This document shows positions 14,161 to 28,188 of a stretch of DNA of 28,188 nucleotides, piece by piece (position 1 is the first letter of the stretch; every line of letters begins with the position of its first letter). The notes below the pieces were generated by a model. The model was not told the origin of the DNA. It saw only the letters and a program-made list of their open reading frames with translations, and searched no databases. This DNA is from a virus: positions 1 through 28,188 of IMG/VR virus record IMGVR_UViG_3300047497_000143. One strand, given 5' to 3'. The translations under genes and the position numbers were made by a program.

Positions 14161-14176
14161 CTAAACCGTTGAGATT

Positions 14177-14202: not shown

Positions 14203-14211
14203 CCCCTTTCG

Positions 14212-14261: not shown

Positions 14262-14411
14262 GTATGCGGCCTAAGACATTGAAAATGTGCCGGATTTTCT
14301 CGCCGGATCTGTTTGGCCCACACTCGGGCCGACATCCGAAATCGTCCGCTTTTCGCACCTAGAGGCGTGCTAGCCTCACAACAACGTGTTCGGTAGGGGC
14401 ACATACCGCCG

Positions 14412-14612
14412 TTACGGCATCTGCTGCAAAGTGGTGTGCGCGTTCGGCTCGACTACGATCACAGGCACGAAGGTCTTTAGCTTGGCAGGCTGGTAGGTCG
14501 GTTGGAACCAGTCGTCACCGTTCGCTGCGTTCTTCGATGTGCACCCGGCGACGCCTAGCACCGCAATTAGGAGCGCCACCAGCGAACAAGCCTTCTGAAG
14601 TCGGTGTGGCAT
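14412..14612 (-). CDS. Small lipoprotein
   Basis: A 66-residue protein with a standard lipoprotein signal: a basic start (MPHRLQK), a hydrophobic stretch (SLVALLIAVLG) and the lipobox VAGC with the lipidation Cys at 25. The mature part is about 40 residues. I use the ATG at 14612; a GTG at 14663 would add an atypical extension. Its location just beyond the attachment site suggests a host or junction gene. Function unknown. Confidence 0.6.
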   Translation of the reverse strand: MPHRLQKACSLVALLIAVLGVAGCTSKNAANGDDWFQPTYQPAKLKTFVPVIVVEPNAHTTLQQMP

Positions 14613-14716
14613 CTGTGCCGCCTGTCTGTTGCGGCCTCTATGCGCCGTTGAGACGACGGACACCAGAAATCCGCTCCACGCTTGTTCTCCCCATGTTCTC
14701 GCCCTAGCCTGCGGGC

Positions 14717-14950
14717 ATGCCCGATGAACGCCCCTTCACTCCCGCCGATCCCGCCGACCTAGAGCAGGCCCTCGCCCACGCTCTCCAATACGACGGGCGG
14801 AAGCGGTTCAAGGTGTCGGGGGAGATGATGGATAAGATCACGGCGGCCCACCTGGTGGAGTGCCTAAGGCAGTCTGGGTATGTCGTTATGAAGAAGCCGC
14901 CCGCGCGACCACACAGCTACAGCCCTGGCAAGGATCGCGGTGGCGAGTAG
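14717..14950 (+). CDS. Conserved small hypothetical protein
   Basis: A 77-residue protein, RPFTPADPADLEQALAHALQYDGRKRF then MMDKITAAHLVECLRQSGYVVMKKPP. This pattern looks like a family of short alphaproteobacterial accessory proteins that I associate by memory with prophage margins, without a known role. The two helical blocks around a basic GRKRF centre could bind nucleic acid; this is conjecture. It stands alone on the plus strand. Confidence 0.6.
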   Translation: MPDERPFTPADPADLEQALAHALQYDGRKRFKVSGEMMDKITAAHLVECLRQSGYVVMKKPPARPHSYSPGKDRGGE

Positions 14951-15000
14951 CATCCCCTCCTTCGGGCCCGAACGAGACTGAGCGCCGGGGACAAATTAGA

Positions 15001-15744
15001 TCAGTTGTCTTCAAACACCTCGATAATATTATGCGCTTTGTTGCAGAACATGCGAAGGGCATCGAAGATCGGAACTGTGCCGAAATGTTCTTCTTCGGCA
15101 AAGGTGATGTGTAGTGAGGCGTCGAAGACGTATTCCGGGCAATCCTTGGCAATTAAAGCAACAACTGTTCCGCCCTCATCGTCAACGCTCCAGTTGGCAA
15201 CAGTGCTTACGTCGCCATTCGCAAACGCGATTTGGGGGAACTGCACAGCGAGCGGTTTCGGCCGCACACCCAGTAGCCGCCGATGTTTCCGCATAATATC
15301 GAGGCGATGAAGGGAGCAAAGGATTGGGTCTCCACCCTCGTAAGGCTGCAAATCTTCAAGGATAACACGGTATTCGTCGCTCAATGACGCCATAAACCTA
15401 CCTACGCGAGTGTTGTGGCTTGTAAGGTCGGTGGCGACGTTTACGAATGGAAATTGCGCTAATCGAGCATCTGTCACGCCGCAGCGGACGGCCAATGCAC
15501 TTGCCAGAATATCTAGAGAGCTACGTATCGTGTTAATGTAGGCGCCTACCTCGACACTGAACCTCAAAGGCAACTCAACTTTCGTTCCGACAATAAGAAC
15601 ATTGCAGTCAGACCTTGGCCCAGCGTTGCGGACTTCGATCAACTTGTTTGCACGAAGCCATTCGTCTGCGCGTCCGATGAGTTCCGGTATTTGCTCCCGC
15701 GCCCACTCAAGCGACGCGTAAGCGTGCTGAAGGTCGTCACGCAC
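15001..15744 (-). CDS. Conserved hypothetical with RSxLD and KHR motifs (HEPN-like candidate)
   Basis: A 247-residue protein starting GTG at 15744 with GGAG upstream. It has an all-helical first part with INTIRSSLDILASALA (about 69-84), FPFVN, then LQPYEGGDPILCSLHRLDIMRKHRRLL (about 132-158) and a beta-rich C-terminus. The order NxxRSxLD, FP, LQPYxGG, LHxLDxxxKHR is a pattern I recall from uncharacterised bacterial proteins in accessory islands. R-x4 helices of this type resemble HEPN folds, but I cannot confirm a catalytic RxxxxH: RKHRR is the only similar spot. It lies 30 bp downstream of an HNH-nuclease gene, suggesting a two-gene unit. Confidence 0.65.
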   Translation of the reverse strand: MRDDLQHAYASLEWAREQIPELIGRADEWLRANKLIEVRNAGPRSDCNVLIVGTKVELPLRFSVEVGAYINTIRSSLDILASALAVRCGVTDARLAQFPFVNVATDLTSHNTRVGRFMASLSDEYRVILEDLQPYEGGDPILCSLHRLDIMRKHRRLLGVRPKPLAVQFPQIAFANGDVSTVANWSVDDEGGTVVALIAKDCPEYVFDASLHITFAEEEHFGTVPIFDALRMFCNKAHNIIEVFEDN

Positions 15745-15774
15745 AGCTCAATCTCCAATGATTGACCGATAAGT

Positions 15775-16530
15775 TCAATCTAATACCGCTGTTAAATCCG
15801 GCCTCAGCTTGTATTTTGAGGGCGCGAAGCGAAGATGTCGAGCGATCGGGATACGAGGATCGTCCGATAGCGGAATGTGCACGACGAAATTCCGGCATGC
15901 TACCACACACCTTCCATCTTCAACCTTGAATGAGAAGGGATTTGCCCAAATGCGGGCGTTGGGGTTTGTTATCGGAAGGCTTCCGCCGAGGATCATCTGA
16001 CTCATGACCGGCATCTGGGGATGGAATTTGAATGGATTGAAGAATTGCTGCCGCATAAGTAATCCGCTTTGCGTTACGACCACGCGATAGCCATATTCTG
16101 AGACTAAGGCTAGGTAAGCGACGGCCAGCCCCGCTATGATATTGAGTTGGCTGACAGAGCCTGGTCCAAAAGCCTTCGCGGTCGTTAGGTCTCGAATTGC
16201 CCTATCATAGTGACGGCCCTTCCAGCTGTTACAGCCGCTGCCGTGAATCTGGTTTCCTTTGTATTTCAGCGGGGCTTTACAAAGTAAGAGATTTCCGGCT
16301 CTGACATTCTTTGGTGTCGAGGGGTCTGCACGCACAATAGCCGGATCTTCCCTTAATGACTGCTGCGGGATTAGATGTTCTAAGTCAAAATCCTGCTGGC
16401 TCAGCCTTCGGCCGCACGCGCAGCACATTAATAGTCCCGATTGTTCCTCTTGCGGCGCGAAAGCCAGGAAGTCCGCGCGCATCTTGTGCCAAAGCTTCTC
16501 TCGAATAGAGGCTTCAGAAACTTCGCTCAT
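15775..16530 (-). CDS. HNH-family endonuclease
   Basis: A 251-residue protein with a zinc-framed HNH core in its first half: CCACGRRL, then DFDLEHLIPQQ (catalytic-type His in LEH), NVRAGNLLLCK, and GCNSWKGRHYDRA. The Cys pairs (CxxC early, then C...GC) would hold structural zinc. The C-terminal half is a separate domain of unknown type ending KYKLRPDLTAVLD. The ATG at 16530 is used; a GTG at 16545 is an alternative and neither has a clear ribosome binding site. It is followed 30 bp later by the RSxLD hypothetical. Base composition is lower in GC than the prophage, suggesting separate acquisition. A defence role is inferred from the nuclease type and location. Confidence 0.75.
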   Translation of the reverse strand: MSEVSEASIREKLWHKMRADFLAFAPQEEQSGLLMCCACGRRLSQQDFDLEHLIPQQSLREDPAIVRADPSTPKNVRAGNLLLCKAPLKYKGNQIHGSGCNSWKGRHYDRAIRDLTTAKAFGPGSVSQLNIIAGLAVAYLALVSEYGYRVVVTQSGLLMRQQFFNPFKFHPQMPVMSQMILGGSLPITNPNARIWANPFSFKVEDGRCVVACRNFVVHIPLSDDPRIPIARHLRFAPSKYKLRPDLTAVLD

Positions 16531-16615
16531 ACCGAAGCCAGGCACTTAGGCGGTTGCCTAGTCACTGGAACGCAGTCGCCTGTTCTTGATCATCGGAACA
16601 GCATGTTAATCCCTG

Positions 16616-16888
16616 TCAAAGGCTAACTGTGATGCTGGGTTGCGCAATATAATTCTCTATAGCCTCATCCGTGCCAAGGATTGCCACCGTCGATTGCCAC
16701 GGACGCCCCTCCATGTCGGTTGAGGTTTCCTGCCCAATGTGAAGAATGTAGTAGCCGTGAACTGAGATGTAATGGTTAAGGCAACCATTGAAATCTCTCG
16801 TTCCATCCATCGGAAAATTGCAATGCTCACATCCTCGCAGGACGTCCGAGGATATTCGAGCAGTGTGCAGCGTGCTCTTGAAGTTCAT
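16616..16888 (-). CDS. Small C2H2-like zinc-finger protein
   Basis: A 90-residue protein with C-x2-C (CEHC, about 20-23), then about 14 residues and H-x4-H (NHYISVHGY), the spacing of a classical C2H2 finger, followed by YYILHIGQET and a beta-rich end (STVAILG). GAGGA lies just before the ATG at 16888, fixing this start over the upstream TTG. Similar short bacterial proteins with an LHIGQET segment exist to my recollection, without known function. DNA binding is possible but unproved. Confidence 0.62.
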   Translation of the reverse strand: MNFKSTLHTARISSDVLRGCEHCNFPMDGTRDFNGCLNHYISVHGYYILHIGQETSTDMEGRPWQSTVAILGTDEAIENYIAQPSITVSL

Positions 16889-16979
16889 AAGTTCCTCTAA
16901 CCTCAAAATTTTTTGTATTCGTCTGTAGTACCGGAGACTTCTTTACCGAGTTCCTTGCTAAATCTCTGCGCCCGCCAAT

Positions 16980-17180
16980 CTAAGTAATCGATGCGGCCTT
17001 CCGCGCTATATATGTGTGGCAAAGCTCCAGGATGGCCCCCCGACCGTCGGTCCCCTCGGGGATCAGATGGATTATGGCCTCAGACATCGCCTCACACACC
17101 TTCTGGTAGGAATTGCCATCGGCAACGCGAGCCTTTGCCCAGCCAAGCGCGGCCTGAGCCAACGCAGCTTCATTGCTCAT
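16980..17180 (-). CDS. Small helical hypothetical protein
   Basis: A 66-residue, Ala-rich helical protein (MSNEAALAQAALGWAKARVADG ... AILELCHTYIARKAASIT). It lies between the zinc-finger gene and the XRE regulator on the same strand. No motif is recognised. Confidence 0.45.
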   Translation of the reverse strand: MSNEAALAQAALGWAKARVADGNSYQKVCEAMSEAIIHLIPEGTDGRGAILELCHTYIARKAASIT

Positions 17181-17237
17181 TTCAAATTAATCCCAAAATG
17201 ATTTCAAGCACGTCATCATACTGCGGGTTGAGCAAGC

Positions 17238-17471
17238 TTAAAAGCTTCTGTTTCGTAACCTTGCCCCCGCTCCGCCCCCGTTTTCAGGAATGAACTGCAC
17301 GCCAGCGGCCTCCAAGGCAGCGCGCAGTGACGCTACAGTCGTCGCGTAGGGCGCGCGACTTCCCCCCTCAAAGTCCGCTATCGTCTTACGTGCGACGGAT
17401 GCCGCCCGTTCAAGATCTGTCTGGGACCAATCAAGAAGGGCGCGAGCGGCGCGGCATTGCGAGGGCGTCAT
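17238..17471 (-). CDS. XRE-family helix-turn-helix regulator
   Basis: A 77-residue single-domain regulator: MTPSQCRAARALLDWSQTDL, ARKTIADFEGGSR, LRAALEAAGVQFIPENGGG. This is a common alphaproteobacterial XRE type in which the HTH fills residues 1-60 and an ENGGG tail follows. It is divergent from the rightward small-gene operon at 17587. Two copies of TTACTCATTTTG lie in the intervening 115 bp, one near its own start and one over a candidate rightward promoter, so it probably represses both directions. Confidence 0.82.
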   Translation of the reverse strand: MTPSQCRAARALLDWSQTDLERAASVARKTIADFEGGSRAPYATTVASLRAALEAAGVQFIPENGGGAGARLRNRSF

Positions 17472-17480
17472 CGTCCTAGG

Positions 17481-17528
17481 TTACTCATTTTGCGTTGACT
17501 AAGCTAGAGGCCGCGCTTACTCATTTTG
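17481..17528. promoter_or_regulatory. Duplicated operator TTACTCATTTTG and rightward promoter
   Basis: Exact 12-bp direct repeats at 17481-17492 and 17517-17528, 36 bp apart. Between them TTGACT (17495-17500) with a 17-bp spacer to TACTCA (17518-17523) could be a rightward promoter whose -10 lies in the second copy. The first copy lies 10 bp from the XRE start codon. Likely binding sites for that regulator. Confidence 0.6.
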
Positions 17529-17586
17529 AGCAGCCGAGCGGGTGCTGGAACACTCCGCCCGGCCTAACCTCAGGATGGAGTGAGCC

Positions 17587-17883
17587 ATGCCTAAAGCTGG
17601 AAGTGTGTCTACCACGAGGCGCCGCGTCGCGCCTGCCGAACGTTCGCAAGCGATAGCAATAGCTACCATTGCGCGTCCAAAACTCACGATTGTTTCGAGC
17701 CGGAAGACTCGCGATGGATCTAGGGAGGCTTGTCTTCAGGGCGTCGCACGGCTGATGCGGCAGTATGAAGCCAATCCTGTCGGGATGGAGTGGATTGCGC
17801 TCGTGCTAGTCATGCACACGGCGGAAGCCCGATCCGAGCGCCTGCACGAACTGGACGCCCGCAAGCGGGTGGTGCTGGCATGA
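17587..17883 (+). CDS. Hypothetical protein, first of a rightward operon
   Basis: A 98-residue protein, basic and Ser/Thr/Arg-rich at the start (GSVSTTRRRVAPAERSQAIAIATIARPKL), helical at the end (ARLMRQYEANPVGMEWIALVLVMHTAEARSERLHELDARK). Its stop overlaps the next start (ATGA), beginning a chain of coupled genes. Family unknown. Confidence 0.6.
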   Translation: MPKAGSVSTTRRRVAPAERSQAIAIATIARPKLTIVSSRKTRDGSREACLQGVARLMRQYEANPVGMEWIALVLVMHTAEARSERLHELDARKRVVLA

Positions 17884-18629
17884 CCCGCCCGACCCGCCGC
17901 GCCGTTCTGACCGGCGCCAGCCTCTCCCTGATCGCCGGGCCTGCCGTGGTCGCCAGCGCGGCCAGCATGTCCAGCAACCCGGACGCGGCGCTGTTGGCTG
18001 CGTGTGCAGCCTTCCATGCCGCTGAACACGCAACAAACAACAGAGGCGATATCTCCGACGATGAAGGAGATATTCTCTGTCTTGCGTATCATGACGCGTT
18101 GTCGGTCGTGGAGGACATGGAGCCGCAAACCCCTCAAGGCGTCGCCGCGAAGGCTCTTGTGGCCCACAACGCGCTCCTGGCAGGCGTGAGCGGCCTCGTT
18201 GGTGTCCCATGGCGTGACCAAGCCGATCTCTTCGAACGGGTTTCCATCGACGTTCTAGCCCTAGTTGCGAGCGCCCACATTCCGGCCGCCGTCTCCTTCC
18301 ACGATCCGGCAGACGTGGCCGTGCAAGCTGCGTGCGCCAGGTTCTACGCCGTCAACGTCGAGCTGCGGCGCGTGGTGGCGGCGGCTAAAGGCCTGCGCAT
18401 CCACACGCCCGAATGCCAGGCGCAGGAAGACGCTGTGGCCGTCCTGAACGATCAGGTGGACGAGGCGGTCGATGCCGTGGCCGACGCACCACCGGCCTCG
18501 CTATGGGGCATGGCGCACAAGGCCAGGCTGTTGCTCGCCATGCCGCCAGAGATGGACGATACGACGCGCGCGAGGTTTGGCGAGGCGATCGCGCGTGACT
18601 TGCTGGTGCTGTCGGGAGAGGTGGCATGA
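17880..18629 (+). CDS. Helical protein with Tat-like leader
   Basis: A 249-residue protein. The start MTRPTRRAVLTGASLSLIAGPAVVASAA has the paired Arg, hydrophobic stretch and Ala-x-Ala-like cleavage region of a twin-arginine signal. The mature part shows two similar segments beginning DAALLAACAAFHAAEHA (about 38) and DVAVQAACARFYAVNVE (about 143), so it may be an internal duplication. Proteins of this sort recur in alphaproteobacterial phage regions as uncharacterised accessories, from memory. It overlaps both neighbours by 4 bp (ATGA). If exported folded, it would act in the periplasm; the role is unknown. Confidence 0.65.
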   Translation: MTRPTRRAVLTGASLSLIAGPAVVASAASMSSNPDAALLAACAAFHAAEHATNNRGDISDDEGDILCLAYHDALSVVEDMEPQTPQGVAAKALVAHNALLAGVSGLVGVPWRDQADLFERVSIDVLALVASAHIPAAVSFHDPADVAVQAACARFYAVNVELRRVVAAAKGLRIHTPECQAQEDAVAVLNDQVDEAVDAVADAPPASLWGMAHKARLLLAMPPEMDDTTRARFGEAIARDLLVLSGEVA

Positions 18630-18850
18630 ACCCCAAACCCCTGAGCATTCATAATCTGGAACAGGTGGGCTTTGAGATACAGGGTGTCGCACAGACCTTG
18701 CGCGCGTTTTGCACCTCTGAGCTGGCTGAGGGCCTTGAAATGTCCATGGACATGTTGGCGGAGAATGCGGCCCGTGCCGCTGCCGACATCGCTCGATTTG
18801 TTGAGGAACAAACAGTTGCTCGGCGGCTTGCTGGGCGAGGTGCGGCATGA
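18626..18850 (+). CDS. Small helical hypothetical protein
   Basis: A 74-residue, strongly helical acidic protein (GFEIQGVAQTLRAFCTSELAEGLEMSMDMLAENAARAAADIARFVEEQ). It is coupled to both neighbours through ATGA and TGATG-type overlaps. No family recognised. Confidence 0.6.
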   Translation: MNPKPLSIHNLEQVGFEIQGVAQTLRAFCTSELAEGLEMSMDMLAENAARAAADIARFVEEQTVARRLAGRGAA

Positions 18851-18972
18851 TGGGGCGCGGATTTCGCTGGCCGTCGCCTTCCTACGGTCCAGTTAAGCCC
18901 GAACCGCCGCTTCCGCCGTGGAAGCCTGTGATTCGCAAACCTCGGCCGCCCAAGGCGGGGACTGGGAAGTGA
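18847..18972 (+). CDS. Tiny proline-rich protein (41 aa)
   Basis: A 41-codon frame starting ATGATG at 18847 inside the previous stop. It is rich in Pro, Lys, Arg and Trp (SPSYGPVKPEPPLPPWKPVIRKPRPPK). The overlap chain on both sides is the main support. Similar Pro-rich peptides can bind membranes or protein partners; the function is unknown. Confidence 0.5.
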   Translation: MMGRGFRWPSPSYGPVKPEPPLPPWKPVIRKPRPPKAGTGK

Positions 18973-19037
18973 CACGGTGCGGGGCGCTGTTGATGGACGG
19001 CCGCCGCATCCACGTCAGATTTAGGCGACGACGGTAG
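18969..19037 (+). CDS. Possible 22-aa basic peptide
   Basis: A GTG start at 18969 overlaps the stop of the previous gene (GTGA), and the frame closes at 19035-19037 after MDGRRIHVRFRRRR. It ends 8 bp before a strong terminator stem. Supported only by position and overlap, so it may be noise. Confidence 0.3.
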   Translation: MTRCGALLMDGRRIHVRFRRRR

Positions 19038-19045
19038 GGGGGTGG

Positions 19046-19077
19046 AGGCCGGGGCTTAAATCCCGGCCTTTTCTTTG
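19046..19077 (+). terminator. Rho-independent terminator of the rightward operon
   Basis: AGGCCGGG at 19046-19053 pairs with CCCGGCCT at 19062-19069, followed by TTTTCTTTG. It closes the 17587-19037 operon, facing the end of the leftward tail-fibre gene. Confidence 0.85.
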
Positions 19078-19087
19078 TTGTGATTGC

Positions 19088-20497
19088 CTAAGCGTAGAAG
19101 CCGAGATTGGTCCCGCTTCCGGTCGTGCCCGCCACGCTACCGGGGAAGTAGCTGGTGCCGCCCCCCTGCGTGTTGATCCCCGCACCCAGCGAAACCGCGA
19201 AGCGCGTCCCCGTCGCTCCAGTCCCTGCGAAGGTCACAGCGCCCAGAAGGTTCGACCAATCGCCGCCGTTCGCCAGGCAGAAGGTGGTGAAGGCGGGCGT
19301 TCCGGCCGTGGTGATGGTGATGGAGCCGAACACGTTGATGGAGCCGCCGAGCACGCTTTGATAATGGTAGGTTGCGCCGCCGCTGATCGTATAGCTGCTG
19401 CCAAGCGTGATGACGCCGCCTGACGTGTAGATATGCGCGCCTGTTGTCGGGCCGAACACGATGCCGCTGTTGACGTTAATGTTGCCCCCACTGTTCGAGG
19501 ATATGCCGCCGGTCAAGGTGGCGTTGGAAACCCCGATATTGGCGCCCAGATAGTCCGCGATGTTCCCGGAAATTGTGGTGCTGCCGGAACCGGCGCCAAC
19601 AATCGCAATGGGCGAGGTTTGCCCCGTCGCCAGGCCGGTTACGCTCACTGCGCCCGAGTAAGTGCCCGCGCCTACGTTGATCGTCGCGCTGAAGCCGTTG
19701 AAGTCATAGGAATTGTAAAGCGCATTCATTGCCGCCTGAATTGTGGCGAAGGGCGAGGCCAGGGATCGCCCATTGTTCGCCGTGTCGTTGCCGTTGCCGG
19801 AAGACACATACAGTGTGAGGTTGGCCGTCAGTTTTTGGCGGAGCTGCGAAAGCTGCGCGAGAAGCAACGGGGAGCCAGGGGCGGGGGCGATGTTGGCCGC
19901 TGTGATCTGGGTTTGTCCGTTTGTCACTGAAACAACGTATAGCGGCGTCCACCCAGCCGTTGCGCCAGGAGTTGCCTGCGTGCCTGCGGCGGCGGGAGTT
20001 CCGGCAATGAGCTGCAAGGATGCGCGCTGAGTGATAAGCGTGTTCTGCGCGCCGCCGCTGTTCGATGGGCCAGAATAGGGCGCGGACGGGTTGGAAGCGT
20101 TATAGTAAGGCAGAACGATCGGGTTGCTGCCAACCTCCAGGAATTGGCATTCGATCAAATAGTTCTGCGAAAACCCTGCCGTGCTGGGGGGCGTGATCGC
20201 CAGCGTGGTTGCTGAGACGTTGATGCCCATTTTCATCAAGGGGTCGGCCGTGTCGGCGGGCAACGAGCCGTAGGGGTTTTGGTCAATGACGTTCATCGAG
20301 GCAATCATGCCCCGGTTGACGGTCACGGTCAGGTTCGGCGTGGGGCTGTTAGGAACGCAAGACAGGCCGTTCACAACCGTAGTGCTGCCAAACGTGGCTT
20401 CGGCCAGGTAGCCGATAGCGACCATGGCATCACGATTCGCATTCAGGACATCGGTGTCTAAAACCATCTGGCCGGGGTAGTTTACAGTCCTGTCCAC
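19088..20497 (-). CDS. Tail-fibre-like / beta-helix phage protein
   Basis: A 469-residue protein starting GTG at 20497 with GGAG 8 nt upstream. The N-terminal region (DRTVNYPGQMVLDTDVLNANRDAMVAIGYLAEATFG ... VVNGLSC) matches a recurrent prophage tail-fibre N-terminus as I recall it. The C-terminal 250 residues have the Gly/Ser/Thr/Asn repeats and short strands of a right-handed beta-helix (SSGNGNDTANNG, FATIQAAMNA, ATINVGAGTYSGAVSV, then alternating strands), as in fibres and polysaccharide-binding spikes. It would bind the host surface as part of a tail. It is the last gene of the leftward operon of element 2; no tail-assembly genes accompany it. Confidence 0.78.
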   Translation of the reverse strand: MDRTVNYPGQMVLDTDVLNANRDAMVAIGYLAEATFGSTTVVNGLSCVPNSPTPNLTVTVNRGMIASMNVIDQNPYGSLPADTADPLMKMGINVSATTLAITPPSTAGFSQNYLIECQFLEVGSNPIVLPYYNASNPSAPYSGPSNSGGAQNTLITQRASLQLIAGTPAAAGTQATPGATAGWTPLYVVSVTNGQTQITAANIAPAPGSPLLLAQLSQLRQKLTANLTLYVSSGNGNDTANNGRSLASPFATIQAAMNALYNSYDFNGFSATINVGAGTYSGAVSVTGLATGQTSPIAIVGAGSGSTTISGNIADYLGANIGVSNATLTGGISSNSGGNINVNSGIVFGPTTGAHIYTSGGVITLGSSYTISGGATYHYQSVLGGSINVFGSITITTAGTPAFTTFCLANGGDWSNLLGAVTFAGTGATGTRFAVSLGAGINTQGGGTSYFPGSVAGTTGSGTNLGFYA

Positions 20498-20499
20498 GC

Positions 20500-20805
20500 T
20501 TATTCTCCGCCTTGGCGTTGCTGGGTTGGGTTCTCTATCTGCGATGCCTGCACGGATGCGCCGCTGCCGTATTGAAAGTGCCCATAACCTGCCAGCGGGT
20601 TGCCGCTGAAAGTCGGGTGCGTAAAGGGTGCGGGCCGCGCCGCTTCGGATATAGCGACCGCCCGCTGTCGGTGTTTTTCCCGGACACTTGCCGACTTGCC
20701 CGGCGCGGCGACTGTCAAGCCGCGCTCCGTTGGCGCTGTGTTAAACAACGCGAAGTTTCCCTGCGGCGATCGCCGCCAGATTTTCCCGGAAAGCGGCGTC
20801 ATCAT
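20500..20805 (-). CDS. Hypothetical protein upstream of the fibre gene
   Basis: A 101-residue protein with a basic start (GKIWRRSPQGNFALF) and a Pro/Gln-rich end (NPLAGYGHFQYGSGASVQASQIENPTQQRQGGE). It overlaps the preceding gene by 65 bp and ends 2 bp before the fibre start. The end region is fibre-adaptor-like in composition, but no family is recognised. The start is uncertain (ATGATG at 20800-20805). Confidence 0.55.
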   Translation of the reverse strand: MMTPLSGKIWRRSPQGNFALFNTAPTERGLTVAAPGKSASVREKHRQRAVAISEAARPAPFTHPTFSGNPLAGYGHFQYGSGASVQASQIENPTQQRQGGE

Positions 20806-21010
20806 CGCGGGCAACCGTCCCCTGTGAAGTTTTGCCCTCCGCAAACTCCCGGATTCGCTTGGCGTCGTAGCTTTCCTCGCCGCGCAGAAGCAGGATCTTG
20901 CCAGTGCGGTCAGCTTCTTCCGTCAATTCGGCCACCCGACCAACAATTAGCCGGTCCTCTGGGGTGATGAAGACGAAACGCTCCGCCTCATTCTTCAGAA
21001 ACTCGCTCAT
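20741..21010 (-). CDS. Small acidic/basic hypothetical protein
   Basis: An 89-residue protein (MSEFLKNEAERFVFITPEDRLIVGRVAELTEEADRTGKILLLRGEESYDAKRIREFAEGK). The first part reads as an antiparallel strand-helix domain with charged patches. The ATG at 21010 overlaps the stop of the preceding gene (TAATG), indicating coupling. Function unknown. Confidence 0.6.
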   Translation of the reverse strand: MSEFLKNEAERFVFITPEDRLIVGRVAELTEEADRTGKILLLRGEESYDAKRIREFAEGKTSQGTVARDDDAAFRENLAAIAAGKLRVV

Positions 21011-21600
21011 TAGAGGATGCCTCCCCAAAGGGCGGTTTCTTCCGGCACGGATCGCAGACACTGGCGAAACTCAACGGGCTGATACTGCGGGTGGGCGTGT
21101 GTGATCGGCGCCAGCTTGCTACCGTCGAAAGGGAGCTTGCACCCCGCCGACATCGCCTTACGGATCACGGCATTAGCGCCCTCCGACCGGGTAACTGCGG
21201 CCCGCATGGCGGCAAGAGCCGCGTCAAAGTCCGCAGCCGCCGCCACACGCTCTTTCGCGCCCGCCCGCAACACGTCCACGTTCGCCAGTGCATGGGATTC
21301 CTCGTGCGCCCTGGCGGCCTCGGATGCCTTCCGCTGAAGGGTCGCCACAAGATTCTGCATGAAAGTCACGTGCGCTTCCGCGTCGCGCTGCGCCTGCTCC
21401 AGATCCACCGGGCGCTTCATGCTCCCGGAGCTGGCTACACCTTCAACGGCCCGCAAATATGCGTCGCGCGCCGATGCGGCTTTCCTCTCAGCGTCCGCAA
21501 ACTCGCGCTTTGCTGCCTCCAGTCGCTCGCCGCTAGCTGCATGTTCCGCAGCCGCCGCGTCGATGATAGTCTTATTCACAAGGCCGTCTGTATCGAGCAT
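21010..21600 (-). CDS. Coiled-coil protein downstream of TerL
   Basis: A 196-residue protein with a long Ala/Glu/Lys helical region (about 12-140) likely to be a coiled coil (ERLEAAKREFADAERKAASARDAYLRAVEG and HVTFMQNLVATLQRKASEAARAHEE), followed by a short globular end (PITHAHPQYQPVEFRQCLRSVPEETALWGG). AGGA lies 9 nt before the ATG at 21600. It takes the position where a portal protein would follow TerL, but it is far too short and of the wrong type. A scaffolding, capsid-size-redirecting or packaging accessory role is possible by analogy with satellites. Confidence 0.65.
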   Translation of the reverse strand: MLDTDGLVNKTIIDAAAAEHAASGERLEAAKREFADAERKAASARDAYLRAVEGVASSGSMKRPVDLEQAQRDAEAHVTFMQNLVATLQRKASEAARAHEESHALANVDVLRAGAKERVAAAADFDAALAAMRAAVTRSEGANAVIRKAMSAGCKLPFDGSKLAPITHAHPQYQPVEFRQCLRSVPEETALWGGIL

Positions 21601-21617
21601 GTTCAATTTTCCTGCTG

Positions 21618-22922
21618 TTAGTAGAGAAGTCGTTTAACGGTTGTCGGGGCTGGACCGAGCGCCGAGAGGTCGGTCAGTGCCCATACCAGCGCGTCCAGCC
21701 TGTCGGGGGACGGGCCGGATTCCATTGGGCACCACTCGCAAAGCTGATCTTCAAGCTCAGGGAAGTTGCCCACGTGGTGCACCATCCCTTGCTCGTAGAG
21801 GGCGACCACAGGCTCAGCACGCACCGCCTTGCCTCTCGTGGCAGTCACCTTCTTAACCGGTGCACGCGAGCCAACACTGCGGATCGTGGCTTCCACCATC
21901 TCGCCGCCGTAATTCGTCTCTGCGATGATGCGGTCGGCCTTAGTAGCGATGAACAAGTCAATTGCTCGCCTGGCCCAATTGCGGGGGGTGAACTTCCCGC
22001 TTCCATCGCGCAGAACGTAGCAGTGACCGTTAGCGGCCTTGCCGACCACGACAATGCCAGTCTCCGCACCGCCCCGGTTGCTGGAACCCGCGGGGTCAAT
22101 CGCCACCACAACCCGCTTCAGATCATCCGGCGCCTGCGTTACGCGGCTGCTGTCCAGCATGTCACGGTTCCACAGAGCGTCCTCAGCATCGTTGAGGATC
22201 TCCGCATCGAGTTCCTGCCGGCCGAGCGTGGTCCCGGCATACATCGTCTTCAGGTGCTCGATTGTGCTGGCGTCTAGGTTCGCCGCGTTGTCGAACGTCT
22301 TTGACCGCGTCGTGACCGTGGACGGCATCGCCAGGATGGCGCGGATTAGCTTCTGGCGCTTGGGAGTGGTCGAGATAACAGCGGCTGGCGCGTCCCCCTT
22401 CGGACCGGGCACACGAAGCGCGAGCTGCGTGTTGCTCCAAACGTCCGCCTGATTTGCCCAGCTCGTAAGTTCGTCGCCCCAAACCCAGTCGAGATTGAGG
22501 CCACGAATGCGGTCCGGTTCCTCGCTAGACAGGCAATGCGCCACCGCGCCATTCGGCCACACAAGGCGGCGCTGCGACGGCTCGTGGATGGGCATGCACC
22601 ACGGCGGCGACACCCTGAGGATTGCCGCCACCTGGTCGCGGCGCAACGTGTCGGCGGTGGGGCCAACAAGCCCCACAGAAGCCCGCCTGCCGCTTTCCAC
22701 CTCCGCCCGCGTCGCCTCTGCGGCAGAACGCGTCTTGCCGCTTCCACGCCCGCCCAGCATGAGCCACGTGCGGAATGCGGTGCGGGGGGTAAGCTGGTCA
22801 GACCGCGCCCACACCGGCCAGTCGTATTCCAGCGCAAGCAACTCGTCCGCCGTAAGCCCGGAGAGGGCCGCGCGGCGGCGGTCCTCCGACATGGCGAGCA
22901 GCCCGTCAGTAAGTGCGCTCAT
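21618..22922 (-). CDS. terL: Terminase large subunit (GTA/Terminase_6-like)
   Basis: A complete 434-residue DNA-packaging motor. ATPase part: Walker A GGRGSGKT (57-64), Walker B-type DWVWGDE (145-151), coupling motif STTPK (184-188). Nuclease part: D276 (VVVAIDPAGS), E335 (IIAETN) and D410 (DRLDALVWAL). All catalytic residues are present, so it looks functional. I use the ATG at 22922 with AAGG upstream; the frame is open to 23060, but a hairpin at 22947-22967 lies in that part. It follows TerS. No portal gene is seen downstream, so packaging would need a portal from elsewhere. Confidence 0.9.
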   Translation of the reverse strand: MSALTDGLLAMSEDRRRAALSGLTADELLALEYDWPVWARSDQLTPRTAFRTWLMLGGRGSGKTRSAAEATRAEVESGRRASVGLVGPTADTLRRDQVAAILRVSPPWCMPIHEPSQRRLVWPNGAVAHCLSSEEPDRIRGLNLDWVWGDELTSWANQADVWSNTQLALRVPGPKGDAPAAVISTTPKRQKLIRAILAMPSTVTTRSKTFDNAANLDASTIEHLKTMYAGTTLGRQELDAEILNDAEDALWNRDMLDSSRVTQAPDDLKRVVVAIDPAGSSNRGGAETGIVVVGKAANGHCYVLRDGSGKFTPRNWARRAIDLFIATKADRIIAETNYGGEMVEATIRSVGSRAPVKKVTATRGKAVRAEPVVALYEQGMVHHVGNFPELEDQLCEWCPMESGPSPDRLDALVWALTDLSALGPAPTTVKRLLY

Positions 22923-22946
22923 GACGCAGACCTTCGTGCCGGGTTT

Positions 22947-22967
22947 AGTGGCGCGAGTTGCGCCACT
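22947..22967. repeat. Hairpin between terS and terL
   Basis: AGTGGCGC (22947-22954) pairs with GCGCCACT (22960-22967) around a 5-nt loop, 25 bp before the chosen terL start. There is no T-run, so it is more likely to tune terL translation or mark a packaging (cos/pac-like) or protein-binding site than to terminate. Confidence 0.5.
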
Positions 22968-23089
22968 TGGGGCGAAAGCGGAGACAATCTCCCCCGAACT
23001 ATGCCAAGGAAACGGCAGAAAAGCGCCATTCGGAATGGGGTCAAATTGCTCGGCCCACATTGCGGCCCACGATTTCGTTTGTGCATCGC

Positions 23090-23467
23090 TCAGCCCGCCG
23101 CTTCTGGAGTTGGCTGGTGCTCGATCACTTCGGGCGCGGCCATGCGGCCAATCTTGCCGAGGATGCGGTCCACCAGCGTCGCTGTGTCGTGCTGATTTGG
23201 CGCGGGCGCGTTAGCCACCACTGCCGCACTCAGGCGCGGGAAGATGAACGGGCACGCCGCCGTTGCCGCCTGAACCCGCACCTGCACGTCGTTTTCCGCG
23301 TCACCCGCGATTTCAACTAAAACCGCCAACGGGTCCTGCGCGGTTGTCAGCACTTCGCGGACGCGGGATTTAGCCAAATTGCGCATCGCCTCCGGTCGCG
23401 GGGTTTTGCCCCTCCAACCGGTTCCGGGCTTCCTTCCGGCACCAATTCTTTTCCCACCAGAAGGCAT
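23090..23467 (-). CDS. terS: Terminase small subunit-like protein
   Basis: A 125-residue protein with a basic Gly-rich start (GGKRIGAGRKPGTGWRGK), typical of phage small terminase N-termini, and a helical part (DPLAVLVEIAGDAENDVQVRVQAATAACPFIFPRLSA). It would recognise the packaging site on the DNA and hand it to TerL, encoded next. A TTGAGG-17-TATAAT promoter lies just upstream, so packaging genes are transcribed separately from the replication genes. In satellites, a self-encoded TerS redirects helper packaging. Confidence 0.75.
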   Translation of the reverse strand: MPSGGKRIGAGRKPGTGWRGKTPRPEAMRNLAKSRVREVLTTAQDPLAVLVEIAGDAENDVQVRVQAATAACPFIFPRLSAAVVANAPAPNQHDTATLVDRILGKIGRMAAPEVIEHQPTPEAAG

Positions 23468-23498
23468 CTCAGAGGCGCTGACTTTTTTTCACGTTATG

Positions 23499-23527
23499 AT
23501 TATACGCGCCGAGTTGCGTGACCTCAA
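23499..23527 (-). promoter_or_regulatory. Sigma70 promoter for the packaging operon
   Basis: Read leftward: TTGAGG (23527-23522), a 17-bp spacer, then the perfect TATAAT (23504-23499), ending 31 bp before the terS ATG. Spacing and -10 are ideal. This is the clearest promoter in element 2. Confidence 0.75.
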
Positions 23528-23642
23528 GATATGGGCAATCAGACTCCAATAAGGTGCTGACTATATCACGCAAATCCCCAATGCGTCTGCATGTGTCAGC
23601 GCTCAGCATAGCCGTGGAAAATTATTTTTGGTGCTCCGAGCC

Positions 23643-23948
23643 TGCTTCGGATGGTGCTTTGTGCTTTGGGTTCTATAGAACCCCAAAAGCATCCGAAGCA
23701 CCGAAGCAAACTCCGAAAATACGTTCCCAGAGCAATCCAAAGCAATCCGAAGCAGAGGAGATTGTGGGGGGGTCATAAGGTCCATACCCAGTCACGGTTG
23801 AAGGATATAAAAGCGTTGCGCTTGAGGGTGTTAAGGGCGTTGTTCTCCGGTCCATACCCCTTACGATCTATGTCGATCGATCCATCCGAAGCAGTCCGAA
23901 GCATGTCCTCCGAGAACCATCCACGGTCCACAAGTCGTTTCCGAAGCA
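23643..23948. repeat. Iterons TCCGAAGCA and palindrome: putative replication origin
   Basis: TCCGAAGCA occurs exactly at 23692, 23746, 23885, 23895 and 23940, inverted at 23643-23651, with near copies at 23700 (ACCGAAGCA) and 23736 (TCCAAAGCA). Pairs sit on a 10-bp period (23736/23746 and 23885/23895), so they lie on one face of the helix. TGCTTCGGATG (23643-23653) and CATCCGAAGCA (23690-23700) flank a perfect 16-bp palindrome centred in GGGTTCTATAGAACCC (23668-23683). AAAATTATTTTT lies just to the left. The cluster fills the non-coding gap 23468-23772 and enters the 3' end of the helicase gene. This is the design of a satellite or plasmid origin beside its rep gene. Confidence 0.78.
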
Positions 23949-24900
23949 AAACGCGCTTGACGGCTTGAACCGGGGGGTAGCCTAGGCCTGGTGTGACCGT
24001 CTGGCCCTCGCAGTCCAGGAGGCCGCGCAGCTCGCGTAGCATCACGGCTGGTGCATCGCGGAGGCGTCCTTCTTTTGCGGTGTTCGCGCCCGCCTTGAAG
24101 TCCGCGCCGGTTGGCTCCGCGACTGGTGCTGTTACGGGGTCGCCGTCGATATCCGGGGGGAAGCTATGGACGCCCAGCGTAAAGGAGAACGTGCCGTCCG
24201 AGGGGCCATTGCGGTTCTTTCCCATGCTGACTGTTCGGGGTTCCGCCCGCTGGCCCTCAAGGTAGAGAGTCACGTCGAAGTCGCCGTTGAGGACGCTGTG
24301 ACCGCGTGGCGTCATGGAGTCTTTGGGCGGGTGGTGGAGGGAGAGAACCGCGCTGTTGCAGATCATGGTGAAGCCGCGCGCCACCTTGACTACGTGCGAC
24401 ATTGAGTCAGGATCGTTCTCCGCTAGGCCAGGGAATGAACGGGCAATCGTGTCCAGGATGATTAGGCCCGGCTGGTGCGCTGTAATGAGCGACTCGATCT
24501 CCTCCACGTGCGGGCTGCCGGGGCTGAGGAAATCCACGGGCACGGGCTGAAGGAAGAAGTTCGGAGCGTCGCCCATTCGCTCATACAGCGCCTTTACCCG
24601 CTGCTTCATGCCGGTGCCGTCTTCCGCCGCGATGTAGAGAACGGGGGTCGGGCGTGTGCGGTGCCCAAATACGTCCAGACCTAGCGCGGTTCGGTAGCCG
24701 AGGAAGGGGGCCAGTGCTGACTTCGCACTGCCCGGCAAACCGATGAGGCCGCCGTGATCACCTTTCGACAGCAGACCCTTAATGACGTAGTCGCGCGGGG
24801 GCTCAATCGCGCATTCACTGGGGGTGAGAACGTGGATCTTCTGCGCTGGGCGCGCACGCTTCTCCGCGCGCATCTCGACAATCGCAAGCCGTTCGCTCAT
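23773..24900 (-). CDS. RepA-like replicative helicase (AAA_25)
   Basis: A 375-residue RecA-fold hexameric-type helicase: Walker A GLPGSAKS (54-61), VLYIAAEDG (87-95), Walker B GLIILD with D150, and SLHHPPKD further on. A C-terminal winged-helix-like region follows (LLRKRLVDRGWFSEDMLRT). The start ATG at 24900 overlaps the stop of the primase gene (ATGA). With the prim-pol partner it would start replication of element 2, perhaps by binding the iterons that begin at its own 3' end. The last 60 codons carry three iteron copies, so coding and origin functions overlap. Confidence 0.87.
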   Translation of the reverse strand: MSERLAIVEMRAEKRARPAQKIHVLTPSECAIEPPRDYVIKGLLSKGDHGGLIGLPGSAKSALAPFLGYRTALGLDVFGHRTRPTPVLYIAAEDGTGMKQRVKALYERMGDAPNFFLQPVPVDFLSPGSPHVEEIESLITAHQPGLIILDTIARSFPGLAENDPDSMSHVVKVARGFTMICNSAVLSLHHPPKDSMTPRGHSVLNGDFDVTLYLEGQRAEPRTVSMGKNRNGPSDGTFSFTLGVHSFPPDIDGDPVTAPVAEPTGADFKAGANTAKEGRLRDAPAVMLRELRGLLDCEGQTVTPGLGYPPVQAVKRVLLRKRLVDRGWFSEDMLRTASDGSIDIDRKGYGPENNALNTLKRNAFISFNRDWVWTL

Positions 24901-25709
24901 CGCCGCGCTCCCATCACCAGGGGAGCGCCCCTGCCGTTGTTTAAGCCCCATTCGATCGTCTTGGCGGCCCCGGCTAGGTTTGCCGCGCCAGCTGCCTCCA
25001 CAGCCCGCAGAAGTGCCTGCGCCGCCTCGTTGGCACTTACGTCTGCCAGATCAAGCAACCCGCCGATGGTTCGAGAAGCAGCGCGCAGGCGGTAATGCTT
25101 CTGCCCCTCCGGTGCGGTGCGGACGGCAGTAAGGCTGCTTTCGATCAACCTCCATGCCGAGTTTGCCTCTCTGTTGCCGTTGGCCGCTCGGGGTAATTTC
25201 GTCGCAACTTGCGACGAAATGGGCTGAGGGAGACGGGGCAGCGCGATTTCCGCAAGCCACTCGGGCCAATCTGCGATCGGCGCCCGGTGCTGCACGGCAC
25301 CACCACAAACAGCCCAGGCGATGACGTAGCCGCCTTCCGCCCGCACATCGACGCCAGGCGCTATCTTTGACTCCGAGTTGCGCATTCCCTCACGCGCCCG
25401 GAAATAGAAGTGCTGCCCGCCGCTACGGGTGCGAACGATCAGGGTTTCGGGCAGGTATGAGGCATACTCAGCCATCCAATCGTCGCTGCCGTGTCGGGGG
25501 TCGGTGTCCAGAACATCGAAGCCGCTCGCGGCGCCGGTTGGCATACCGATGAGCTGGCCCCCATATCGCGCCCACAGTTGCCGGACTTCTTGCGGATCGG
25601 AGCTGGCATTCTTGAACCCGTTAGGTGTCGCGGGCTCTTTAGTGACGCGGCACGGGAAGACGGGCTTTCCTCGTCCGGCCAGGCGCAACGCGTTTTCTAG
25701 GGGCGTCAT
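24897..25709 (-). CDS. Prim-Pol (bifunctional primase/polymerase domain)
   Basis: A 270-residue protein of the prim-pol family found in phages and plasmids. Features: FPCRVTKEPATPNGFKNASSDP near 18-39, the metal-binding D68-x-D70 (VLDTDPRHG), SGGQHFYF with H100, and PGVDVRAEGGYVIAW (118-132). It primes DNA synthesis at the element's origin. I choose the ATG at 25709 with AAGG about 8 nt upstream; the stop of the small upstream gene overlaps it (ATGA). The C-terminal 70 residues are a helical extension. The primase and helicase are separate here, while element 1 fuses them. Confidence 0.88.
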   Translation of the reverse strand: MTPLENALRLAGRGKPVFPCRVTKEPATPNGFKNASSDPQEVRQLWARYGGQLIGMPTGAASGFDVLDTDPRHGSDDWMAEYASYLPETLIVRTRSGGQHFYFRAREGMRNSESKIAPGVDVRAEGGYVIAWAVCGGAVQHRAPIADWPEWLAEIALPRLPQPISSQVATKLPRAANGNREANSAWRLIESSLTAVRTAPEGQKHYRLRAASRTIGGLLDLADVSANEAAQALLRAVEAAGAANLAGAAKTIEWGLNNGRGAPLVMGARR

Positions 25710-25909
25710 GGCACCACCTTCGCAGTGAGGCGAAGCCACTTTGCTTCAGCCTCGCGACGTTGGCGGGACATGGGCATCCCAACGTCATCGCTGTGCCAAA
25801 CGCGAGTGCCGGCCCCTTCGCCGGTCGTGCTATCAGGCAGCCATCGCCGGAATTGCACGTTACGGTCGGGGTCGCTTTGCTGAGCCGCCTGTGCGGCGCG
25901 GGCGCTCAC
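25706..25909 (-). CDS. Small basic hypothetical protein
   Basis: A 67-residue protein, GTG start at 25909 within the preceding stop (GTGA), end overlapping the prim-pol start (ATGA). It is basic, Arg/Gln-rich, with RQRREAEAKWLRLTAKVVP at the end. The overlaps on both sides support expression. No family recognised. Confidence 0.5.
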   Translation of the reverse strand: MSARAAQAAQQSDPDRNVQFRRWLPDSTTGEGAGTRVWHSDDVGMPMSRQRREAEAKWLRLTAKVVP

Positions 25910-26028
25910 GATGACGCCACTTCAAAACGGAATTGTTGAAAGGAGGCTTTCGATCCGCTATCTGTCACTTGCTGATGGCGACTGATACCGGCTGGAAAGC
26001 CCTGCACTAGCCCGCAGGGTTTTTCCAT
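25906..26028 (-). CDS. Possible 40-aa protein
   Basis: ATG at 26028, 2 bp after the AlpA stop, ending in a GTGA overlap with the next start. The sequence MEKPCGLVQGFPAGISRHQQ and a basic/aromatic tail show no motif. There is no clear ribosome binding site. Supported mainly by filling the operon gap. Confidence 0.4.
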   Translation of the reverse strand: MEKPCGLVQGFPAGISRHQQVTDSGSKASFQQFRFEVASS

Positions 26029-26030
26029 TT

Positions 26031-26249
26031 TTAGGCCGCCGCTTGGTCGGCAGCGCGGAACTTGGCGGGCGGCAGACTGTGCCAGAACGCGTCGATCGAC
26101 TCCGTGGTGACGAGAGTCTTGCTGCCGCACTTCACGGCCCTCAGGCGTCCAGCCGCGAGCAAGCGGTTTATTGTGGCGCGTGAGACTGAGATTTGCTGCA
26201 TGGCGGTCTCGATAGAGACACCGCGCGGGGCACTCAGCGTATCACTCAT
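26031..26249 (-). CDS. alpA: AlpA/excisionase-family regulator
   Basis: A 72-residue winged-helix protein: SIETAMQQISVSRATINRLLAAGRLRAVKCGSKTLVTTESIDAFWHSLP, the HTH_17 pattern with a wing around KTLVTT. In P4-like elements and Gram-negative phage-inducible islands, AlpA-type proteins activate excision and the replication operon. The placement between integrase and primase-helicase fits that role. AGGAG lies 8 nt before the ATG at 26249, with TATAAT upstream flanked by two direct repeats. Confidence 0.82.
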   Translation of the reverse strand: MSDTLSAPRGVSIETAMQQISVSRATINRLLAAGRLRAVKCGSKTLVTTESIDAFWHSLPPAKFRAADQAAA

Positions 26250-26308
26250 CGGCTTATCTCCTGCTGCATCTGGCGGGTGCCAGCGACGGGGAGATACCTA
26301 GAGAGACA

Positions 26309-26374
26309 GCCGAGGGAGGTTCAGACGGATAAACTCAGGCCGAATTATACCGGGCACAAACCCAGGGAGGTTTA
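26309..26374 (-). promoter_or_regulatory. AlpA promoter region with direct repeats
   Basis: Read leftward there is a perfect -10, TATAAT (26349-26344), but no good -35 at 16-18 bp. The words AGGGAGGTT at 26313-26321 and 26364-26372 are direct repeats 51 bp apart, on each side of the -10; the upstream copy occupies the -35 position. Weak -35 plus flanking repeats suggests an activated or repressed promoter. Confidence 0.55.
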
Positions 26375-27025
26375 TTCCCCCCTCGGGTAGTTAGTGTCCA
26401 GGAACGCCCTGATGGCCTGCCGCTTAGGGGTTTCGCCGGTAATCCTCTGGATCATAGCCTCAAGGAAGCACATTAGCGGCCCGTCTTCAGTGCGGCCGAT
26501 TTCACGGCCCGGGTTGGTCGGCGCCAAAGCCTGAATGAATGCGATTTCAAGTCGGCTGACGATCTCGTGCCAGCGCTTTCGGTTCCTGGCGGGCGTCCCG
26601 CCCCAGGATGAGGCCATGTGGCCCCTGAGCAAGGGCAGGGACGGGTTCTCCGTGGCCGCGATCAGCTCATCCAGCGCCTTTATTCCGGCCTCGGCGCGCG
26701 CCACGACGTCAGCCGCGGCTTCGCCCGCGTCGCGCTGATGGGCCTGTAATGGAATCAAAACCTGGTCACGTAACCATGGCGCTAGTGCCCGAACCTGAGC
26801 GAGGGCATTTAAGAACATCACGTGCCTGGCGGTTCTGTCTGCCTCAAGATCCTCGCTATGCACCATCAGACGCAGCACTTCCAGGTTGTTCGACAGAAGC
26901 TCAAGGCTGCTACTTGTCGGCCCCCTAACCGGAGAACGGTCTTTGATGATGCGCTCAGTCTCTAAGATCTCCTGCACGCGTTCGGGTGTGAAGAATCGGT
27001 GAGGCGACGCTTGAAGTTGCTCCAT
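26372..27025 (-). CDS. Hypothetical protein next to integrase
   Basis: A 217-residue, mostly helical protein (ERVQEILETERIIKDRSP, LELLSNNLEVLRLMVHSED, ADVVARAEAGIKALDELIAATEN) ending DTNYPRGE. It begins 2 bp after the integrase stop, in the same direction, so the two are co-transcribed. No catalytic motif seen. Position suggests a regulator of integration or an accessory protein; this is inference. Confidence 0.6.
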   Translation of the reverse strand: MEQLQASPHRFFTPERVQEILETERIIKDRSPVRGPTSSSLELLSNNLEVLRLMVHSEDLEADRTARHVMFLNALAQVRALAPWLRDQVLIPLQAHQRDAGEAAADVVARAEAGIKALDELIAATENPSLPLLRGHMASSWGGTPARNRKRWHEIVSRLEIAFIQALAPTNPGREIGRTEDGPLMCFLEAMIQRITGETPKRQAIRAFLDTNYPRGE

Positions 27026-27027
27026 GG

Positions 27028-28188
27028 CTACGACGCTTTCAGCGCGCGGATTTGCACCACGTTGTCAGATGGCTTGCCGGTGGATGCGCAGAAGGCCGCC
27101 CAAGCTTCCATCAGTTCGCGCCGCCGGTCGAACAGATCGTTACGGGCATAGGCCCGCTCGGTTGAATCTCCGATCGCATGCGCCAACGATGCCTCGATAA
27201 CCTCACGTGCAATGGTCGTGTTATCGCCAGCCCACTGCCGAAACACCGATCGAAAGCCATGGACCGTCACGTCTGCGATTTTCATCCGCTTTAGGACAGC
27301 CGCCATGGACATGTTGCTTAGGCCAGTCTTTGGCTTCTGGCCCGGGAACACAAACCCGTCTCCGCCCTCTGCCCGTGTTGGCAGAAGCGCAGTGAGAACC
27401 TCCTTCGCGGCGGCCGTCAGAGGCACACGATGCAGGCGCCCCATCTTCATGCGCTCAGCCGGGATGGTCCATGTGCCGCTGTCCATGTCGATTTCAGACC
27501 ATCGCGCGCCGATCACCTCGCCTGTTCGGGCGGCGGTTAAGATCGCGAACCGGAGCGCGAGGGCAGCTGTGCCGCCTTGCTTGTGTAGCGAGGTCATAAA
27601 GCCCCCCATCTCGGCAAGGGGCAGCGCGGCATGGTGTTCGACTTGGGCGACCTTCGCCGCCTTCGGAAGCAGGTTCTCAATGTGACCCTTCCAGCGGGCC
27701 GGGTTCTCGCCTGTCCGCCATCCTCGGCTGGTAGCGTAGTCGAGCACGGACTCGATGCGGCCACGCACCCGAGTCGCTGTTTCAGTTTTTTCGAGCCAAA
27801 GGGGTTCCACAACCCGCATCACAGCGCCCGTATCGACCGCTTGGACTGACCACTTGCCGAAAACGGGGGCGGCATAGGTCGTCAGCGTGTTCTTCCACTG
27901 CTGAACGTGCTTCGCGTTCTTCCAGGTCGGTTCGTGGGCGGCAATGTAGAGCTTCGCCACCCCGTCGAAGGTCATAGTCACCTGCTCTACCTTGGCCCGC
28001 TTCTCGCCAATGGGGTCACGCCCAGCAAAGACGGTCTGAGCCGCCTCGAAGCTCGCCCGGCGTGCCGCTGCCAGTCCCACAAGGGGATAGGGGCCTAGGC
28101 CGAGCTGCTTCTGTCGGCCCTGCCAAGTGTAGCGGAATAGCCAAGAGCGGCGGGGTGGGCGATTGGCGTCCGTGCTCTTCCGGTTCGG
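27028..28188 (-). CDS. int: P4-type integrase, start beyond the window
   Basis: The frame is open to the right edge, so the N-terminus is cut off. The last 36 codons at the edge encode SWLFRYTWQGRQKQLGLGPYPLVGLAAARR, the DUF4102 arm-binding domain of P4-type integrases; the apparent GTG start at 28080 is an internal codon. Catalytic residues visible: Arg in LTAARTGEVIGARWSEID, H-x2-R in VHGFRSVFRQWA, His in LAHAIGDSTERAYAR, and the Tyr of that same stretch. It reads away from the missing right boundary, as in P4-like islands inserted at a tRNA or similar site. A second integrase so near the first shows two separate elements. Confidence 0.9.
   Translation of the reverse strand, partial: PNRKSTDANRPPRRSWLFRYTWQGRQKQLGLGPYPLVGLAAARRASFEAAQTVFAGRDPIGEKRAKVEQVTMTFDGVAKLYIAAHEPTWKNAKHVQQWKNTLTTYAAPVFGKWSVQAVDTGAVMRVVEPLWLEKTETATRVRGRIESVLDYATSRGWRTGENPARWKGHIENLLPKAAKVAQVEHHAALPLAEMGGFMTSLHKQGGTAALALRFAILTAARTGEVIGARWSEIDMDSGTWTIPAERMKMGRLHRVPLTAAAKEVLTALLPTRAEGGDGFVFPGQKPKTGLSNMSMAAVLKRMKIADVTVHGFRSVFRQWAGDNTTIAREVIEASLAHAIGDSTERAYARNDLFDRRRELMEAWAAFCASTGKPSDNVVQIRALKAS

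What the first reader, a model, noticed from the sequence alone, without database searches (positions are those of the whole stretch)
19088..28188. Compact element with replication, packaging and a tail fibre but no capsid genes: candidate new phage satellite
Seen: integrase, AlpA-like regulator, prim-pol, helicase, iterons, TerS, intact TerL, coiled-coil protein, two small unknowns and a tail-fibre-like protein, all on one strand with start/stop overlaps and no broken genes. Nothing resembles portal, major capsid, protease, tape measure or baseplate. Known: Gram-negative phage-inducible islands share the int-alpA-primase/helicase-terS order, and satellites lack capsids. Inferred: a helper-dependent element that brings its own packaging motor and receptor-binding fibre. 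A decayed prophage would usually show frameshifts and remnants. I know of no described satellite with exactly this gene set.
Basis: partly seen in the sequence, partly recalled or inferred. Interest (0 to 1): 0.9.

Follow-up and report, generated by a model that had tools for sequence, protein, structure and literature searches.

The report
Capsid-less satellite-like island with packaging motor
A short stretch of bacterial DNA carries intact genes to insert, copy and package itself and to make a virus tail fibre, but none for a virus shell; it most likely lives as a parasite that borrows the body of another virus, though a virus that lost its middle part cannot be ruled out.

Summary
The gene set is real: on the minus strand run integrase, HTH_17 (AlpA-type) gene, prim-pol, AAA_25 helicase, iterons, TerS, catalytically intact TerL, a coiled-coil protein, a small unknown and a tail-fibre gene, with no stop inside any of them. 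No portal, capsid, tail or lysis gene, nor a trace of one, is detectable. The quoted limits are not element ends: the contig stops inside the integrase, and on the left the fibre converges on a repressor-linked operon. The second 'small unknown' overlaps a sub-threshold Proteo-phage-1 RNA and is doubtful. The inward integrase with HTH_17, then primase-helicase-origin, then late genes, is the published order of Gram-negative phage-inducible islands, which capture helper late genes; the neighbouring prophage has the opposite layout. In Rhodovastum and Pantoea phage-plasmids, distant TerL and fibre relatives lie 19-20 kb apart, here 1.1 kb. Best reading: a PICI-like satellite with its own motor and a fibre whose N-terminus is shared with baseplate-linked proteins of Acetobacteraceae myophages. 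Main rivals: internal-deletion prophage, or a record cut at its edge. No second copy was found, so function and recurrence are unshown. New variant of a known kind.

The parts
27028..28188 (-). P4-type tyrosine integrase, 5' end cut by the record edge; transcribed inward
   Evidence: PF22022, PF00589, PF13356; relatives 44-55% in viral contigs
26372..27025 (-). unknown protein, 217 aa, next to the integrase
   Evidence: no family in Pfam, PHROGs, PADLOC, NCBIfam; no plasmid hit
26031..26249 (-). HTH_17 / AlpA-type regulator-excisionase
   Evidence: PF12728 E 9.5e-7; phrog_66 excisionase
24897..25709 (-). Prim-Pol primase
   Evidence: PF09250 E 4.6e-27
23773..24900 (-). RepA-type AAA_25 helicase
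   Evidence: PF13481 E 4.3e-24
23643..23948 (.). iteron cluster and 16-bp palindrome: presumed replication origin
   Evidence: 6 of 6 TGCTTCGGA copies of the window here; 9 of 9 TGCTTYGG; palindrome at 23668
23090..23467 (-). terminase small subunit (likely)
   Evidence: phrog_641 E 1.2e-4, phrog_15261; promoter-like site 23527-23499, 10 of 12
21618..22922 (-). terminase large subunit, catalytic residues intact (start set by alignment)
   Evidence: PF03237 and PF17289; alignment with phage TerLs, 35-48% identity
21010..21600 (-). coiled-coil protein, unknown
   Evidence: two long helices, pLDDT 68 from a single sequence; no PDB fold match E<0.001; no relatives
20741..21010 (-). small unknown protein, 89 aa
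   Evidence: TAATG overlap with the previous gene; no family match
20663..20730 (-). Proteo-phage-1 RNA candidate (below the gathering score), overlapping the doubtful 114-aa ORF
   Evidence: RF03044, 35.0 bits, E 0.0032 (14 kb searched) and 0.00018 (0.8 kb searched)
19088..20497 (-). tail fibre; residues 1-235 shared with proteins next to baseplate J/gpI genes of Acetobacteraceae myophages, own C-terminal part
19044..19071 (.). hairpin terminator between the fibre gene and the converging operon
   Evidence: 11-pair stem with T tail; fold z -1.9 and -2.2 on the two strands
17238..18850 (.). HTH_3 repressor (-, 17238-17471) diverging from an operon (+, 17587-18850) that converges on the fibre gene; possibly part of the element
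   Evidence: HTH_3; 249-aa product related to one in L028

Best explanation
A PICI-like phage satellite of an alphaproteobacterium, probably Acetobacteraceae. Shown by sequence: integration genes (integrase aimed inward, HTH_17), a replication block (prim-pol, RepA-type helicase, iterons) and a late zone (TerS, intact TerL, coiled-coil protein, fibre), with no virion shell, tail or lysis genes. Inferred: a helper phage triggers it; HTH_17 helps excision or induction; it replicates from the iterons; its own TerS-TerL selects and pumps its DNA into proheads supplied by the helper; its fibre, whose N-terminus is shared with proteins encoded next to baseplate genes of Acetobacteraceae myophages, is added to or replaces the helper's fibre; the helper supplies head, tail and lysis.
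For: Zone order and inward integrase with HTH_17 fit the published GN-PICI layout, while the neighbouring prophage has its integrase aimed outward next to a tRNA-Arg att fragment and no HTH_17 gene was recognised there. Iterons beyond chance at the expected place. TerL catalytic residues kept. No stop inside any gene. No structural gene or remnant (weaker: 119, 120). Fibre N-terminus tied to baseplate-adjacent proteins. Promoter-like site before TerS, terminator after the fibre.
Against: Only one copy; neither att site is in the window; the host genome is not held. No published satellite with TerL plus fibre but no capsid was found in the papers read. Elements with integrase, AAA_25, HTH_17 and also portal, capsid and tail-type genes exist (L075/L076), so the front end alone does not prove a satellite. 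No Bro zone.
Confidence: 0.5

Rival explanations
1. Deletion derivative of a temperate myophage: about 18 kb from portal to baseplate was lost, leaving TerL next to the fibre; a defective prophage without a satellite life cycle.
For: TerL and fibre relatives lie 19-20 kb apart on one strand in Rhodovastum RHOApd and in a Pantoea plasmid. L028, whose TerL piece is 70% identical, runs TerL-portal-gpD-like protein with no capsid before a converging operon.
Against: No remnant of the missing genes and no stop in the kept ones; inward integrase and HTH_17 are not the usual prophage layout; the proteins between TerL and fibre have no phage relatives.
Confidence: 0.3
2. Incomplete record: the contig ends inside the integrase, and the head and tail genes of an ordinary temperate phage lie beyond it.
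For: Integrase cut at 28188; in the permuted ~17-kb element L075/L076 tail-type genes lie upstream of the integrase and the head genes downstream.
Against: An integrase whose 5' end faces outward normally abuts the att site; TerL here is followed by fibre, not portal.
Confidence: 0.15
3. Assembly chimera or two partial elements joined in tandem.
For: Two integrases in 28 kb with a tRNA-Arg(CCG) 3' fragment at 14208-14262 between them.
Against: The operon 26.2-19.1 kb is continuous with overlapping genes; the fragment is an att-type piece also found in proviruses L078 and L079, so two integrated elements side by side is natural.
Confidence: 0.05

Closest known systems
Gram-negative PICIs, including helper-embedded PICIs (PMC6092414, PMC10111431)
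   Same: int inward + AlpA/HTH_17, primase and origin, sometimes TerS, then a variable late zone of captured helper genes; compact, one strand
   Different: Here TerL and a fibre gene but no capsid gene; no Bro zone; alphaproteobacterial; helper and att sites unknown
Capsid-forming PICIs (named in PMC11389934; details recalled, not read here)
   Same: Satellite with its own TerS and TerL
   Different: cfPICIs make their own capsid and take tails; this element has no capsid or portal
Mulch and Flayer satellites of Streptomyces phages (PMC10690885)
   Same: Satellites that bring encapsidation machinery
   Different: They lack key replication genes; this element has replication genes and no capsid
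P4-like satellites
   Same: P4-type integrase, AlpA-type gene, primase-helicase
   Different: No match to P4 capsid-sizing genes; has TerL and fibre
Acetobacteraceae myophages (Komagataeibacter phiKX1, Rhodovastum phage-plasmids RHOApd and RHOApg)
   Same: Homologous fibre N-terminus next to baseplate genes; RHOApd also has a TerL relative
   Different: They carry complete head and tail genes

Membership tests
Gram-negative PICI | Integration zone: integrase aimed inward with AlpA/HTH_17 | tested here: met
   criterion
Gram-negative PICI | Replication zone: primase with origin downstream | tested here: met
   Prim-Pol + AAA_25; iterons
Gram-negative PICI | Bro zone between AlpA and replication genes | tested here: not met
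   only a 67-aa ORF there; no Bro domain in element proteins
[quoted passage not shown] the later study allows captured late genes) | tested here: not met
   fibre present; head, tail and lysis genes absent
Gram-negative PICI | Size about 10-20 kb | tested here: inconclusive
   at least 9.1 kb; both ends unknown
Gram-negative PICI | Own att site; induction and transfer by a helper | not testable with these tools
   record edge cuts the integrase; no host genome held
Capsid-forming PICI | Own capsid and portal | tested here: not met
Capsid-forming PICI | Own TerS and TerL | tested here: met
P4-like satellite | psu, sid and delta genes | tested here: not met
   no such match in Pfam or PHROGs scans
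Defective prophage | Broken genes or structural remnants | tested here: not met
Defective prophage | Close full-length relative with the same flanks | tested here: inconclusive
   none in viral contigs, phages or plasmids; the genome-contig scan gave only one distant locus, so Acetobacteraceae genomes were not reached

The most novel reading that the evidence does not exclude
A class of satellites that keeps only the two ends of the virion programme, motor and receptor-binding fibre: its own TerS-TerL packs its DNA into borrowed heads and its own fibre re-addresses borrowed particles, so packaging choice and target choice belong to the parasite and everything else to the helper.
Probability: 0.2. 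Interest if true: 0.75.

Novelty: new variant of a known kind. Interest (0 to 1): 0.45.

Why it matters
Known satellites mostly redirect a helper's packaging or build their own heads. One that brings its own motor and receptor-binding fibre but no shell would show that packaging specificity and host targeting can be taken over without making any capsid, and that late genes captured by satellites are picked by function. It would also place PICI-like satellites in Acetobacteraceae, for which no paper on satellites was found here.

Tried and rejected
Viral scans with helicase, coiled-coil protein and the 249-aa protein found no relatives; plasmid searches with coiled-coil, 217-aa and 249-aa proteins were empty. 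The fibre model with 8 sequences was too poor to use (pLDDT 37). The Proteo-phage-1 stretch does not fold better than shuffles (z -0.02), so it rests on the covariance-model score alone. A portal/capsid in the unknown proteins was considered and rejected on size, fold and profile searches. Collagen-like tail-fibre matches probably come from a low-complexity ORF antisense to the 249-aa gene (my reading of its sequence; the table does not name the member). PF04860 and PF05065 searches miss many real portals and capsids in the control records, so their blanks in the window are weak.

Full report
The window is an IMG/VR record of 28188 bases without a held host genome. It holds two things. Positions 1-14207 are the early end of an ordinary temperate phage: RusA, RepB-type primase-helicase, Cas4-type exonuclease, helicase, Sak4, CI-type repressor and an integrase, ending at 14208-14262 in the 3' half of tRNA-Arg(CCG), read; the same 41 nt sit in proviruses L078 and L079 as a truncated tRNA. 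Positions 19088-28188 are the finding.

Gene set. On the minus strand, in order: integrase, 217-aa unknown, HTH_17, (67-aa ORF), prim-pol, AAA_25, iterons, TerS, TerL, coiled-coil 198 aa, 89-aa unknown, a doubtful 114-aa ORF, fibre. No coding sequence has an internal stop and G+C by codon position is gene-like. Prim-pol/helicase and coiled-coil/89-aa genes overlap as ATGA and TAATG. TerL keeps GGRGSGKT, the WGDE box and the nuclease residues. The iteron word TGCTTCGGA occurs six times in the window, all in 306 bases at the end of and behind the helicase gene.

What is missing. Profile searches of the element proteins and of 36 further ORFs on both strands found no portal, capsid, protease, tape measure, baseplate or lysis gene. 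A tblastn of 1116 ORFs from related loci against 14.2-28.2 kb found only TerL, fibre, integrase and the tRNA piece. The coiled-coil protein is modelled as two long helices and has no virion-like match.

Ends. The record's end cuts the integrase. On the left, fibre and a plus-strand operon converge on a hairpin terminator; that operon diverges from an HTH_3 repressor at 17238-17471. A relative of its 249-aa product sits in the same converging position in L028, so the element may reach to 17 kb or beyond. No tRNA was found in 14263-28188.

Relatives. Full-length TerL relatives at 35-48% lie in phages, with portal next in those inspected. Residues 1-235 of the fibre match, at up to 53%, a protein right after the baseplate J and gpI genes in Acetobacteraceae phages. 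In Rhodovastum RHOApd and a Pantoea plasmid, TerL and fibre relatives are 19-20 kb apart. So TerL beside a fibre is not the normal phage order. L028 shows another mixture: TerL, three small genes, portal, one small gene, a gpD-like protein, then the converging operon and tRNA-Ser; relatives of its portal sit in fuller phages with probable scaffold and capsid genes (by eye). It may be a sister element or a decaying prophage.

Interpretation. Gram-negative PICIs are described as Integration (int inward, AlpA/HTH_17), Bro, Replication (primase, origin) and Late zones, the late genes being captured from helpers, whereas prophages lack AlpA and have int aimed outward (PMC10111431). The element matches three of the four zones; the prophage beside it matches the prophage pattern. 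PICIs were first characterised by lack of structural genes (PMC6092414), so the fibre means it is filed as PICI-like, not as a PICI. L075/L076, whose integrase is 44% identical, combine integrase, AAA_25 and HTH_17 with portal, capsid and tail-type genes, so the front end alone is not proof. Weighing this, a helper-dependent satellite is most likely (0.5), a deletion prophage next (0.3), a truncated record third (0.15).

Limits. Acetobacteraceae chromosomes could not be reached, so recurrence, the decisive test, was not done. The Acetobacteraceae host is inferred from fibre relatives only. Helper, packaging and fibre use are inferred.

Noticed in passing
window 14208-14262: 3' half of tRNA-Arg(CCG) right after the left prophage's integrase, an attR; the same fragment occurs in IMG/VR proviruses L078 and L079.
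   Followed up: yes
window 20663-20730: Sub-threshold Proteo-phage-1 RNA (RF03044) just before the fibre gene; in Pseudomonas phage phiAH14a the RNA lies between the NinG region and the terminase genes, so it may be a late-operon leader (inference).
   Followed up: partly
L028 1-8748: Compact capsid-less element: TerL, three small genes, portal, small gene, gpD-like protein, converging operon, ending at tRNA-Ser; possible second example of a reduced element.
   Followed up: partly
L075 and L076: Two contigs overlap as one permuted element of about 17 kb with integrase, AAA_25, HTH_17, portal, protease-capsid fusion, tail-type genes and TerS; no TerL recognised.
   Followed up: partly
window 15001-16545: AT-richer pair of genes, 247-aa unknown and HNH-type protein with weak PtuB resemblance (best E 7e-4): possible cargo or defence genes.
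   Followed up: partly
window 17880-18629: 249-aa protein with a signal-like start, related to a protein at the same converging position in L028; no family in Pfam or NCBIfam.
   Followed up: partly
window 5152-5814: Tlde1-domain protein (PF10908) encoded in the left prophage.
   Followed up: no
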